Origin: Flintibacter sp. KGMB00164
Lineage (GTDB): Bacteria; Bacillota; Clostridia; Oscillospirales; Oscillospiraceae
DNA length: 64,000 nucleotides
Assembly: GCF_008727735.1 (NCBI RefSeq)
Contig: NZ_CP044227.1
Span: 2,367,001-2,431,000, forward strand
Reading direction: 5' to 3'
This document shows, one piece after another, positions 5,701-16,466 of the stretch. A model generated the notes under the pieces. That model worked only from the letters and a program-made list of their open reading frames with translations. It ran no database searches and was not told where the DNA came from. The position numbers and the translations under genes are program-made. The stretch's first letter is position 1. Every line of letters starts with the position of its first letter.

Positions 5701-7038
5701 ATGGCTAAGCTTGTGTATGATGAAACCGGCCGTCTGCTCTTTACGAAGGAGATGAAGGAGGAGTACACCCTTCTGATGCCCCAGATGCTCCCCGTCCACT
5801 TTGGCATGATGCAAAAGCTCCTGCAGAATCAGGGCTACAAGGTGGATATGCTCACCACCAACCACCGCGGGATCGTGGATGAGGGCCTCAAGTACGTCCA
5901 CAACGACACCTGCTACCCCGCCCTGCTGGTCATCGGCCAGCTCATCGACGCGGTGAAGCATGGCGGCTACGACCCCCACAAGGTGGGTCTGCTCATCACC
6001 CAGACCGGCGGCGGCTGCCGGGCCAGCAACTACATCCACCTGCTGCGCAAGGCGCTGGAGAAGGCCGACATGGCCTATATTCCCGTGGTCTCCGTCAACC
6101 TGTCCGGCCTGGAGAAGAACCCCGGCTTCAACCTGACCCTGCCCTTTATCCGCAAGGCAGTGTACGCCATGATGTACGGTGACATCATCGTCAACGTAGC
6201 TAATCAGGTGCGCCCCTACGAGGTCAATGCCGGCGAGACCGACGCCATGATCGAGGCCTGGTCCCACCAGCTGGTCAACGGCTTTGAGCAGGGCAAGGGC
6301 ATGAGCCGCGCCCAGATGCGCAAGATTTTTGCCGAGATTTGCGATGACTTTGCCTCCATCCCCGTTCAGGGCGAGCCCAAGATCCGGGTAGGCATCGTGG
6401 GCGAGATCTACGTAAAGTTCGCCCCCCTGGGCAACAACAACTTGGAGAAGTTCCTGCTCAGCGAGGGCGTGGAGCCTGTGGTGCCCGGCCTCACCGACTT
6501 CATCATCTTCAAGATCTACAACCGGGTTTCCGACGTGGATCTGTACGGCGGCAAGTGGATCAAGAAGGCGGCCTGCAAGGCCTTTATGTCCTATATCGAG
6601 GGCTGCCAGAAGGATATGATCCAGGCTCTGGAGAACTCCCACCGCTTCCGCGCCCCCGGCACCTTCCAGGATCTGCACAAGCTGGTCCACGGCTACCTGG
6701 GCGACGGCAACAAGATGGGCGAGGGCTGGTTGCTCACCGCCGAGATGCTGGAGCTCATCCACTCCGGCACCAACAACATCGTCTGCACCCAGCCCTTCGG
6801 CTGCCTGCCCAACCACATCGTGGGCAAGGGCATGATCCGCAAGCTGAAGGACGACTACCCCACCAGCAACATCGTGGCCATCGACTACGATCCCGGCGCC
6901 ACCAAGATCAACCAGGAAAACCGCATCAAGCTCATGCTGGCCAACGCCAAGGGCCTCTCCCACCAGGAGAGCGCCGCGCCCCGTGCCGCCGCCCAGGAGG
7001 GCAGCCGCACCCTTACCCACGCCGGCGCCCACGCTTGA
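5701..7038 (+). CDS. 2-hydroxyacyl-CoA dehydratase (HgdB/DUF-type) family protein, partner of the upstream activase
   Basis: A 445-residue protein with the conserved cysteine motifs of the dehydratase-like C-terminal module found in giant activase proteins: HNDTCYPALLVIGQ near residue 64, TQTGGGCRASNY near 101, and CTQPFGCLPNHIVGKG near 362, followed by an IDYDPGATKINQENR segment. These cysteines probably bind a [4Fe-4S] cluster. The start has an AGAAAGGAA ribosome binding site. It is co-transcribed with the 977-residue activase, and in many clostridia the two halves are one protein of about 1,400 residues, so they probably form one complex. The C-terminal 30 residues are low complexity (Ala, Arg, His). 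The reaction is unknown; assignment to hydroxyacyl-CoA chemistry is by family only. A terminator follows. Confidence 0.82.
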   Translation: MAKLVYDETGRLLFTKEMKEEYTLLMPQMLPVHFGMMQKLLQNQGYKVDMLTTNHRGIVDEGLKYVHNDTCYPALLVIGQLIDAVKHGGYDPHKVGLLITQTGGGCRASNYIHLLRKALEKADMAYIPVVSVNLSGLEKNPGFNLTLPFIRKAVYAMMYGDIIVNVANQVRPYEVNAGETDAMIEAWSHQLVNGFEQGKGMSRAQMRKIFAEICDDFASIPVQGEPKIRVGIVGEIYVKFAPLGNNNLEKFLLSEGVEPVVPGLTDFIIFKIYNRVSDVDLYGGKWIKKAACKAFMSYIEGCQKDMIQALENSHRFRAPGTFQDLHKLVHGYLGDGNKMGEGWLLTAEMLELIHSGTNNIVCTQPFGCLPNHIVGKGMIRKLKDDYPTSNIVAIDYDPGATKINQENRIKLMLANAKGLSHQESAAPRAAAQEGSRTLTHAGAHA

Positions 7039-7124: not shown

Positions 7125-7153
7125 TTGACGGTCCAGGGGTATTCTGATATACT
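7125..7153 (+). promoter_or_regulatory. Promoter of the MATE exporter transcript
   Basis: TTGACG at 7125-7130 and TATACT at 7148-7153 are separated by exactly 17 bases. Transcription would start near 7160, giving a leader of about 120 bases that contains the structured element described next. Confidence 0.82.
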
Positions 7154-7159
7154 GAGGCA

Positions 7160-7257
7160 CAAGACAGCGCCATCCGTGCCCACGGGCCCGTCGATCCCCA
7201 CGGATGGATATTTCAGTTGGTAACACGGGCTCCCAGGGGGGGAGCTCGTGTTTTTTT
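7160..7257 (+). promoter_or_regulatory. Conditional terminator with pseudoknot potential; candidate guanidine-IV (mepA motif) riboswitch
   Basis: Between the promoter and the MATE start codon there are two stems. P1 is a perfect 9-bp stem (7170-7178 with 7199-7207) closing a 20-base loop. P2 is a 12-bp stem (7223-7234 with 7240-7251, one G-T pair) followed by a run of seven T (7251-7257), a complete intrinsic terminator placed before the gene. Bases 7184-7191 in the P1 loop can pair with 7225-7232, the 5' arm of P2 (8 bp, one wobble), so pseudoknot and terminator exclude each other. A P1 hairpin whose loop pairs with a terminator arm upstream of a MATE gene is the known architecture of guanidine-IV riboswitches. 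The structure is read directly; the ligand is inferred from architecture and gene context. Confidence 0.6.
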
Positions 7258-7282
7258 ATTCAAAAGAAAGGAACGAGATCTC

Positions 7283-8626
7283 ATGGAACAACACAACAAC
7301 ATCCTGGGCACCATGCCGGTGCGGAAGCTGGTGCTTACCATGTCCTCGCCCATCATGCTCTCCATGCTCATGGGTGCCATCTACAACCTGGTGGACAGCA
7401 TCTATGTGGCTCAGGTCAGCGATCTGGACTTTCTGGCTCTGTCCTACGCCTATCCGGTGCAGCTGATGATCGTAGCCTTCTGCGCCGGCCTGGGAGTGGG
7501 ATTCAACGCCATTCTGGCCAAGCGCCTGGGAGAAGGCCGCCTGGAGGATGCGGTAAATGCGGCCTGCCACGGCTTTTTGCTCTACGGCGCGGTCTGGCTG
7601 CTGGCTCTTATCTTTGCCCTGGTAGGCTGTACTCCCTTTTTCCAAAGCTGCTCGGACAATCCGGTGGTGGTTCAGTCAGGTATTGCCTATCTCACCATCT
7701 GCTGCGGACTGTCCATCGGCCTTTGCATGCAGTTTCTCTGTGAACGTATTCTCCAGTCCACCGGCCATCCCGCTGGATTTATGATCGTTCAAGGCTCGGG
7801 CGCGCTGCTGAACATCGTGCTGGACCCCATCTTCATCTTTATCTTTGACATGGGTGTGGTAGGCGCCGCGGTGGCCACGGTGATCGGACAGATTTCCGGC
7901 GCCTGCATCGGCTTTTTTCTTCTGTGGCGCCTTCGCCGCAGCTTTCCCATCTCTCCCCGCCGCTTCCACTTCTCTCCCCCGCTTACCGGTGAGATCCTGC
8001 GCATTGCCGCCCCAGCCATCGTCATGCAGTCTCTCTCCAGCTTTATGACGCTGGGGCTTAACCAAATCATGAACCTGTGGTCGGAGACCGGGGTATTCGT
8101 CCTGGGGGTCTACTTCAAGATTCAGTCCTTTGTGTTCATGCCCATCTTCGGCGTGAACAGCGGCCTCATTCCCATCATCAGCTACAACTACGGCGCGAAA
8201 GACGCTCCGCGCATTTCCCAGTCCATTCGCTTCGGACTTCAGCTGGGGGTGTGCACCGGTCTGGCCGGTACGGCAATCCTTTCTCTGGCCGCTTCCCCTC
8301 TGCTGCGCTGGTGCTTCCAGGCGCCGGAGGAGGCCGTTCAGATGGGCGTGCCCGCCCTGCGGATGACCGCGCTGGCTTTCGCCGTGGCTTCCGTGAGCAT
8401 TGTCCTCTCCGCCGCCTTCCAGTCCCTGGACCGCAGCAGTTGCTCGCTGCTGGTCTCCCTGCTGCGCCAGATCATTTTCCTGCTCCCCATCGCCCTGCTT
8501 CTGATCCGTGTGAAGCCGGAGCTGGTGTGGCTGTGCTTCCTTCTCGCTGAGCTGTTCACCGTGGCCATCGCCATTCCCCTCTACCGCAGGACTGTGGTTC
8601 CTCGCATCCGTGCCCTGGAAGGGTGA
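7283..8626 (+). CDS. MATE-family multidrug/toxic compound exporter (MepA-like)
   Basis: A 447-residue protein with about twelve hydrophobic helices and the two-fold MATE layout. The N-terminal half has the NLVDSIYVAQ segment near residue 35 and a LDPIFIF motif near 180; the second half begins near 235 with a matching helix set. MATE proteins expel organic cations and drugs using Na+ or H+ gradients. Start ATG 7283 follows an AAAGGAA site; a longer in-frame start at 7217 is rejected because it would lie inside the leader terminator. Expression is probably controlled by that conditional terminator. If it is a guanidine-IV switch, the exporter would serve guanidinium or related toxic cations; this is inference. 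Confidence 0.88.
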   Translation: MEQHNNILGTMPVRKLVLTMSSPIMLSMLMGAIYNLVDSIYVAQVSDLDFLALSYAYPVQLMIVAFCAGLGVGFNAILAKRLGEGRLEDAVNAACHGFLLYGAVWLLALIFALVGCTPFFQSCSDNPVVVQSGIAYLTICCGLSIGLCMQFLCERILQSTGHPAGFMIVQGSGALLNIVLDPIFIFIFDMGVVGAAVATVIGQISGACIGFFLLWRLRRSFPISPRRFHFSPPLTGEILRIAAPAIVMQSLSSFMTLGLNQIMNLWSETGVFVLGVYFKIQSFVFMPIFGVNSGLIPIISYNYGAKDAPRISQSIRFGLQLGVCTGLAGTAILSLAASPLLRWCFQAPEEAVQMGVPALRMTALAFAVASVSIVLSAAFQSLDRSSCSLLVSLLRQIIFLLPIALLLIRVKPELVWLCFLLAELFTVAIAIPLYRRTVVPRIRALEG

Positions 8627-16240: not shown

Positions 16241-16466
16241 CTCAGGTGAGTTTTCCTGCTCGGTGCGTGATGGGCTCTTTTAAACCCACATTTTTTAAAC
16301 GGGACGCCCACCTCACGGCGTGGCTTGCAGGCCTCCCGGCCCCCATCGAGGTCGGCTGGAAGTTGGAAGCAGATAAGCGTCGTGGAGGCGACCCACCTGC
16401 CATTTCGTGCAGGTTTTAAACGGGTTCACACGGCCAGAGCGGGGTATATAAAGCTCATTTGGAACT
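16241..16466 (+). ncRNA. ssrS: Probable 6S RNA (long rod-shaped structured RNA)
   Basis: The 226 bases before a strong terminator fold end to end. Closing helices pair 16246-16254 with 16450-16458 (two wobbles), 16255-16261 with 16437-16443 (one wobble), 16262-16264 with 16433-16435 and 16266-16269 with 16429-16432. Then comes a large A/T-rich internal bubble whose 3' side carries a small hairpin (16395-16400 with 16409-16414), then a G+C-rich apical arm (around 16312-16320 with 16378-16388). A closing stem, a central bubble with a small 3'-side hairpin and an apical stem is the architecture of 6S RNA, which binds the housekeeping RNA polymerase. The identification is by structure, not by remembered sequence. 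Exact ends are uncertain and I see no clear promoter of its own. Confidence 0.55.

What the first reader, a model, noticed from the sequence alone, without database searches (positions are those of the whole stretch)
7125..7282. Pseudoknot-type conditional terminator in front of a MATE exporter: candidate guanidine-IV riboswitch
A consensus promoter is followed by a 9-bp hairpin and then a complete 12-bp terminator before the MATE ribosome binding site. Eight bases of the first loop (7184-7191) can pair with the 5' arm of the terminator (7225-7232), so loop pairing would prevent termination. Established knowledge: the guanidine-IV (mepA motif) class has this compact loop-to-terminator pseudoknot and precedes MATE genes. 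The ligand here is inferred and could differ.
Basis: partly seen in the sequence, partly recalled or inferred. Interest (0 to 1): 0.7.

Follow-up and report, generated by a model that had tools for sequence, protein, structure and literature searches.

The report
Possible new riboswitch before exporter gene
In front of an exporter gene of a bacterium related to Flavonifractor lies a short RNA hairpin followed by a transcription stop signal, an arrangement found in eight genomes of one genus that appears to differ from the guanidine-IV riboswitch it was taken for; it likely acts as an on-switch that would let the exporter be made when an unknown small molecule is present, which would give a lead to what the exporter carries.

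Summary
In detail: a promoter (7125-7153), a 9-bp hairpin (7170-7207), a 13-bp terminator (7222-7252) and an 8-bp match between hairpin loop and terminator 5' arm precede a MATE gene (7283-8626). Nine copies were found, in 8 of 64 genomes of the genus; 8 of 9 visibly precede a MATE gene. The hairpin co-varies (4 of 9 pairs change on both sides) and 7 of 9 copies start just behind a promoter. The loop-to-terminator pairing keeps one register in all nine but shows only one-sided changes: likely, not proven. The guanidine-IV label fails. A covariance model built here from six sugE leaders that carry most published guanidine-IV residues also finds such an element before a pnuC gene of this same genome and matches 21 of 71 genomes of the order (15 of 22 places read), but not this element or its homologs. 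Rfam reports no riboswitch on ten of those loci, so its silence says nothing. Best reading: an orphan, likely ligand-gated ON switch with guanidine-IV-like logic and a different aptamer; ligand unknown. The Gd4v motif could be judged only by proxy. Binding and switching were not tested.

The parts
7125..7153 (+). sigma-70-type promoter, TTGACG-17-TATACT
   Evidence: a promoter-like pair with 17-nt spacer (9 or 10 of 12) ends 6-15 nt before the element in 7 of 9 copies
7170..7207 (+). hairpin P1: arms 7170-7178 and 7199-7207, loop 7179-7198
   Evidence: 4 of 9 pairs with changes on both sides across 9 copies, 96.3% of cells paired
7179..7198 (+). conserved loop (putative ligand-sensing part), consensus YCCAYGG(G)YCCG...UCCC
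   Evidence: 11 of 20 columns invariant (gap columns count as variable), linker 0 of 22; alignment A6
7184..7191 (+). loop strand of the proposed pseudoknot
   Evidence: 8 bp with 7225-7232; same register in 9 of 9 copies, no two-sided change
7219..7221 (+). conserved GG[UC] in the linker, role unknown
   Evidence: GG[UC] followed by 1-3 nt and ACGGG in all nine sequences read
7222..7257 (+). intrinsic terminator: arms 7222-7234 and 7240-7252, U-run to 7257; 7225-7232 is the other pseudoknot strand
   Evidence: ACGGG of the 5' arm invariant in 9 of 9
7267..7273 (+). ribosome-binding site AAAGGAA
   Evidence: sequence
7283..8626 (+). MATE-family exporter gene, the likely regulated gene
   Evidence: PF01554 113.8 bits, TIGR00797 161.8 bits, both over the cut-off; closest solved structures by sequence are BH2163 entries

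Best explanation
The leader at 7160-7258 belongs to an RNA motif with nine copies found here, and it likely is a ligand-gated transcription switch in which the conserved loop of the first hairpin is predicted to pair with the 5' arm of the terminator, which would stop the terminator from forming and would turn the MATE exporter gene on. Shown: the hairpin, the terminator, their conservation, co-variation of the hairpin, the position behind a promoter (7 of 9) and in front of MATE genes (8 of 9). Inferred: that the loop-to-terminator pairing forms, that a small molecule stabilises it, that the default is termination (OFF) and the ligand turns it ON. Order of events would be: P1 folds first; its loop meets the terminator 5' arm (about 40 nt later) before the 3' arm leaves the polymerase; with ligand the pairing persists and the polymerase reads through; without it the 13-bp hairpin wins. 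The ligand is unknown; a MATE substrate, perhaps an amine or cation, is the likeliest kind. It would work like guanidine-IV but, by the tests here, is not a guanidine-IV riboswitch.
For: Nine copies in 8 of 64 genomes of the genus (15 places listed, 6 rejected by reading), 8 of 9 visibly 5' of a MATE ORF. Over both helices 6 of 22 pairs have two-sided changes against 2.6 in shuffles, and 92.9% of cells pair against 33-51% when slid. Loop 11 of 20 columns invariant, linker 0 of 22. All nine keep a 6-9-pair loop/terminator match, wobbles included, in one register; the window's 8 bp is reached by 13 of 2000 shuffled loops. A promoter ends 6-15 nt before the element in 7 of 9. Isolated pairing -13.6 kcal/mol in the window.
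Against: The pseudoknot has only one-sided changes, so co-variation neither supports nor refutes it. With at most one G-U allowed, shuffled loops match as well in 694-848 of 2000 for the three short-loop copies, 707 for G014 and 53-62 for G414/G559; isolated pairing falls to -8.3 and -5.6 kcal/mol in short-loop copies. The loop could pair with the 3' arm instead. The number of further pair types is not above shuffles (10 against 10.2), the shuffles ignore kinship, and A6 was fitted to the structure. P1 is not unusually stable by energy (z 0.16). All copies come from one genus. 14 of 21 close MATE loci show no copy (one, L169, starts inside the gene). No ligand, binding or termination data.
Confidence: 0.56

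Rival explanations
1. It is a guanidine-IV riboswitch, or its Gd4v variant, and senses guanidine or a related compound.
For: Same overall plan (hairpin, terminator, loop-to-terminator pairing, likely ON switch), and MATE genes are among the genes of both motifs (PMC7736828, PMC9788692); GNAT genes, also shared by both, lie beside the MATE gene in 4 of 25 loci.
Against: Model R3 of guanidine-IV, which matches this genome and 20 others of 71 (15 of 22 places read), does not match the element. Loop of 18-20 nt instead of a 4-nt [AG]CCG cap; no UAGG[CU] loop; an invariant ACG trimer where the class is stated to have none. R3's identity rests on my reading of published residues; no published alignment and no Gd4v sequence could be seen, so for Gd4v the test is by proxy.
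Confidence: 0.08
2. A protein-controlled attenuator: an RNA-binding protein holds the first hairpin or its conserved loop and thereby prevents the terminator.
For: A short hairpin with a conserved loop in front of a terminator is also what anti-terminator proteins bind (established knowledge); narrow distribution fits a lineage-specific protein.
Against: Rfam shows no known protein-bound leader. Conserved residues lie in both loop and terminator arm, as in an RNA-only switch. Neighbouring genes were not surveyed for regulators, so this rival is little tested.
Confidence: 0.17
3. A DNA operator: the inverted repeat 7170-7207 just behind the promoter is the binding site of a repressor, and the terminator is a plain attenuator.
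For: The arms form a 9-bp inverted repeat close to the expected transcription start; symmetric changes in the arms would also fit a dimeric repressor.
Against: The spacing between the arms changes by 2 bp between types (20 against 18), which would rotate the half-sites, and the spacer is as conserved as the arms (11 of 20 against 5 of 9 columns). A terminator follows in all nine.
Confidence: 0.08
4. A leader-peptide attenuator or a terminator without regulation.
For: A GTG-initiated 15-codon frame runs from the first hairpin to just before the terminator in the window; stretches like a ribosome-binding site precede other frames in 6 of 9 leaders.
Against: No such site precedes the GTG frame in any of the nine; that frame is 13 to at least 100 codons long in the copies and shifts by 2 nt in three; the other frames share no position. 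An unregulated terminator would not need a conserved 5' hairpin and loop.
Confidence: 0.11

Closest known systems
Guanidine-IV riboswitch (GGAM-1, mepA motif)
   Same: Hairpin then intrinsic terminator, loop-to-terminator pseudoknot, ON by preventing termination (here inferred), MATE among its genes; pseudoknot strands about 40 nt apart in both (C30-G71 in C. botulinum, PMC11611296 passage; 7188-7228 here).
   Different: Copies read here have an [AG]CCG-capped hairpin that pairs with a UAGG[CU] terminator apical loop; the window motif has a long conserved loop and would pair with the lower 5' arm; its MATE is of another branch (26% identity).
Gd4v motif (guanidine-IV variant, ligand unknown; PMC9788692)
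   Same: Orphan; genes for MATE and GNAT proteins among its neighbours; a hairpin part above the pseudoknot strand of the terminator.
   Different: Described as extremely similar to guanidine-IV in sequence and structure, which the window motif is not; over half in front of a transaminase gene, here MATE in 8 of 9. Its alignment could not be opened.
HMP-PP (thiS) riboswitch, terminator-embedded aptamer
   Same: Terminator hairpin takes part in ligand sensing (start of abstract in a listing, and a passage of PMC8632094).
   Different: Different gene and ligand; Rfam finds no relevant family at the element. Sequences not compared.

Membership tests
Guanidine-IV riboswitch | match to a covariance model of the class | tested here: not met
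   R3 (from six sugE leaders, L183 L187 L198 L201 L210 L227, identified by published residues) matches nothing at 7160-7262 at E up to 10 (default filters) and none of the nine elements with filters off (11 matches, all elsewhere in the loci); control: 39.6 bits before pnuC in this genome, matches in 21 of 71 genomes of the order
Guanidine-IV riboswitch | [AG]CCG-capped hairpin pairing with UAGG[CU] in the terminator loop | tested here: not met
   of 21 copies (6 of them R3's own) 10 have G-C and 9 A-U as third pair, none mismatched, 2 not parsed; absent from the window element
Guanidine-IV riboswitch | highly conserved G (Lla G72, Cbo G77) in the second loop | tested here: not met
   G at that spacing in 19 of 21 copies; without a UAGG[CU] loop the window element has no counterpart
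Guanidine-IV riboswitch | no conserved ACG trimer (PMC7736828) | tested here: not met
   ACG in the terminator 5' arm in 9 of 9 and in the loop in 7 of 9
Guanidine-IV riboswitch | terminator-based ON switch in front of an exporter gene | tested here: inconclusive
   terminator and MATE present; switching not measured
Guanidine-IV riboswitch | guanidine binding | not testable with these tools
   needs in-line probing
Gd4v motif | core extremely similar to guanidine-IV (PMC9788692) | tested here: inconclusive
   by proxy it fails: the guanidine-IV model does not match; but no Gd4v sequence was on hand to show that R3 would find Gd4v
Gd4v motif | D1: not G at the guanidine-IV conserved position; D3, D4 | not testable with these tools
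   figure and alignment not held; text only
[quoted passage not shown]
   from one to about five terminator pairs lie above the pseudoknot strand, depending on the copy, without an internal bulge
Gd4v motif | gene classes transaminase, GNAT, MATE | tested here: inconclusive
   MATE in 8 of 9; GNAT beside MATE in 4 of 25 loci, just upstream of the element in two; no transaminase case among the nine
Riboswitch (any) | conserved cis-regulatory RNA with co-variation in front of a gene | tested here: met
   all copies from one genus
Riboswitch (any) | direct ligand binding | not testable with these tools
   no ligand known

The most novel reading that the evidence does not exclude
A new, rare riboswitch class of the Flavonifractor/Pseudoflavonifractor group: a compact aptamer made of an 18-20-nt hairpin loop docked on the 5' arm of a terminator, sensing a so far unknown small molecule exported by a MATE transporter, and living beside a true guanidine-IV riboswitch in the same genome, doing the same kind of job with another aptamer.
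Probability: 0.48. Interest if true: 0.7.

Novelty: new variant of a known kind. Interest (0 to 1): 0.52.

Why it matters
If it is a riboswitch, its ligand would tell what this MATE exporter carries; MATE substrates cannot be read from the family name. It would add a second terminator-docking aptamer plan next to guanidine-IV in one genome, so the two could be compared directly. It also shows that a negative Rfam search does not rule guanidine-IV in or out.

Tried and rejected
Rfam at gathering and relaxed thresholds: no relevant match. The first alignment misplaced the element because the wrong ends of two loci were given and was dropped. Model R1, which includes the terminator, collected mostly plain terminators: 71 of 394 genomes of the order at E up to 0.5; of 30 loci 29 were read at the match (L060 was not) and two hold the motif, the window's own and G414; matches without a locus were not read. 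Hits at query 73-90 gave no motif. Pattern scans of viral contigs gave 8 stretches, none with the linker and terminator. BLAST of the element in plasmids (2 records) and phages (5) gave only short weak matches. Looking for Gd4v beside ornithine-cyclodeaminase genes found none that I could recognise. Twenty MATE loci of four genomes gave no Rfam match. The guanidine-IV pattern had 9 hits; three (L258, L264, L300) were rejected as long and coding-like. Leader peptide rejected. A self-dimerising loop was considered: the palindrome is lost in G018.

Papers: PMC9788692 text parts 1-5 of 6 read; PMC7736828 section 12 (part 1 of 2), section 13 and passages; PMC11611296, PMC12186494, PMC11477304, PMC6429828, PMC8632094, PMC11701678, PMC12335538, PMC13273304 passages only; all others search listings. 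No listing or passage seen describes this motif (searches, 108 of the held open-licence library); figures and supplements could not be opened. That Flavonifractor and its kin are gut bacteria is recalled, not from a call.

Full report
What is there. The leader of the MATE gene holds a promoter (7125-7153), a 9-bp hairpin with a 20-nt loop (7170-7207), a linker, a 13-bp intrinsic terminator (7222-7252, U-run to 7257), a ribosome-binding site and the ATG at 7283. The gene upstream ends at 7038 and is followed by a terminator-like hairpin, so this promoter-leader unit likely serves the MATE gene. Eight loop bases (7184-7191) match eight bases of the terminator 5' arm (7225-7232) with one G-U. Shuffled loops reach this in 13 of 2000 cases; of 114 other terminators in the window and related loci one offers an equal partner. 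The first hairpin is not unusually stable by energy (7155-7224, z 0.16).

Is it conserved? BLAST in 60 genomes found three relatives in two genomes. A model of five sequences (R2) found 15 places in 13 of 64 genomes of the genus at E up to 0.05; reading them leaves nine true copies in 8 genomes; six were rejected (five places without the motif, one antisense reading). In a draw of 398 genomes of the phylum three matched: the own copy and two rejected on reading. In 240 genomes of the family three matched, all of this genus. Strict filters were used, so weak copies may be missed. Carriers by record title include Flavonifractor sp. An100 and uncultured Oscillospiraceae bins.

Context. Eight of nine copies precede a MATE ORF, in G036 at a distance of some 250 nt; the ninth contig ends. 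Six of the encoded proteins are 59-85% identical to the window's. Of 25 related MATE loci seven hold the element. A GNAT acetyltransferase gene lies beside the MATE gene in 4 of 25: in two the element sits between the genes, in two none was found. In G414 the element follows a tRNA-Gly gene, with the best promoter match in front of the tRNA. In 7 of 9 a promoter-like pair with 17-nt spacer ends 6-15 nt before the element; in G559 the contig starts too close.

Structure. On the nine-member alignment A6, P1 has 96.3% of cells paired and 4 of 9 pairs with changes on both sides; the terminator 90.4% and 2 of 13. Sliding the partners drops pairing to 33-51%. Against this: A6 was fitted to the structure, the copies are kin, and further pair types are not above shuffles (10 against 10.2). 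The loop has 11 of 20 invariant columns, each P1 arm 5 of 9, the linker none of 22. In the terminator 5' arm ACGGG never varies, but 17 of 121 local terminators, the family's own included, also carry CGGG there, so this invariance is weaker evidence than the loop.

The pseudoknot. A hand-set register gives 8 pairs in the window, 6 in the three short-loop copies and 9 in the G414 type, wobbles included. All changes are one-sided. With at most one G-U, shuffled loops do as well in 694-848 of 2000 for the short-loop copies, 707 for G014, 53 and 62 for G414 and G559, and 12-13 for the window, G036 and G567. Because ACGGGCCCGT is self-complementary the 3' arm is an alternative partner of 4-7 pairs. 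The 5' arm is preferred because it is transcribed first: this is inference. The minimum-energy fold of the transcript ending at 7236 contains the loop-to-arm pairing, though at the cost of P1.

Is it guanidine-IV? Rfam gave no match, but that proved uninformative. I surveyed leaders of SMR (sugE) genes. Besides guanidine-I (5 of 6 loci, 4 of 20), six of the 66 leaders read share a hairpin capped by GCCG and a terminator loop UAGGCC. These fit the published guanidine-IV residues G66 and G72, in part G62, of L. lactis and the pairs C30-G71 and A29-U72 of C. botulinum, with U67/U72 replaced by C and the partner A by G. The identification is mine, from these residues, not from a published alignment. 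Model R3 from these six found a copy in front of a pnuC gene in this same genome, there with the published A-U version, and matches in 21 of 71 genomes of the order. Of the 22 places 15 were read: ten precede genes that look like pnuC (one tested by Pfam), two MATE-like, one SMR-like, one another gene, one shows no ORF. PnuC and MATE are named guanidine-IV gene classes. Over 21 copies the third pseudoknot pair is G-C in 10 and A-U in 9, never mismatched, 2 not parsed. Rfam reported no riboswitch on ten such loci, only tRNAs. R3 finds nothing at the window element or at its homologs with filters off. By these tests the window motif is not guanidine-IV. For Gd4v the only statement available is its close similarity to guanidine-IV, so that exclusion is by proxy.

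How it most likely works. P1 folds at the very start of the transcript; its loop, with the linker GG[UC], would form a pocket when docked on ACGGGC; a ligand would hold this state and block the terminator; without ligand the terminator (hairpin -23.6 kcal/mol against -13.6 for the isolated pairing) would win. This would make the MATE gene inducible, likely by its own substrate. Every step after the anatomy is inferred.

Verdict. Interest is moderate: rare and short, but with a clear test plan.

Noticed in passing
G000:C1:2538473-2538556 (outside the window; L301:1501-1584): A guanidine-IV-like element (39.6 bits) precedes a pnuC-type transporter gene (PF04973) in the window's own genome.
   Followed up: yes
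L301, L305-L318, L183, L187, L198, L201, L210, L227: In guanidine-IV-like copies the pseudoknot swaps between GCC/GGC and ACC/GGU; 8 of 9 parsed ACC/GGU copies precede pnuC-like genes (the ninth, L307, shows no ORF), the parsed SMR and MATE ones are GCC/GGC; L310 is GCC/GGC before a pnuC-like gene.
   Followed up: partly
L301, L305, L306, L308, L309, L310, L312, L313, L315, L317: Rfam 15 at gathering thresholds reports no riboswitch on ten loci with guanidine-IV-like elements, so a negative Rfam scan is no evidence about this class.
   Followed up: yes
L161:2772-2948; L160:1-176: In G414 the element sits right behind a tRNA-Gly gene and a terminator-like hairpin, with no promoter of its own seen, so the MATE mRNA may start as tRNA read-through. 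G559 shows the same order by sequence, but its contig starts inside the tRNA and ARAGORN reported none.
   Followed up: partly
L166:2036-2599, L168, L156, L171: A GNAT acetyltransferase gene lies next to the MATE gene in 4 of 25 loci, suggesting a shared amine substrate.
   Followed up: partly
G000 whole genome: PF01554 gives 45 domain matches in this genome, roughly 22 MATE genes at two per gene; only one copy of the element was found.
   Followed up: no
L223, L228 (end of leader): Two SMR leaders share an unexplained arrangement of hairpins with GGAACGGGUUAUU or GGAAUGGGUUAUU before a terminator.
   Followed up: no
window 16250-16449: 6S RNA gene (Rfam RF00013, 76.4 bits).
   Followed up: no
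window 7176-7223: A GTG-initiated 15-codon frame overlaps the element; its length and end are not conserved in the other copies.
   Followed up: yes
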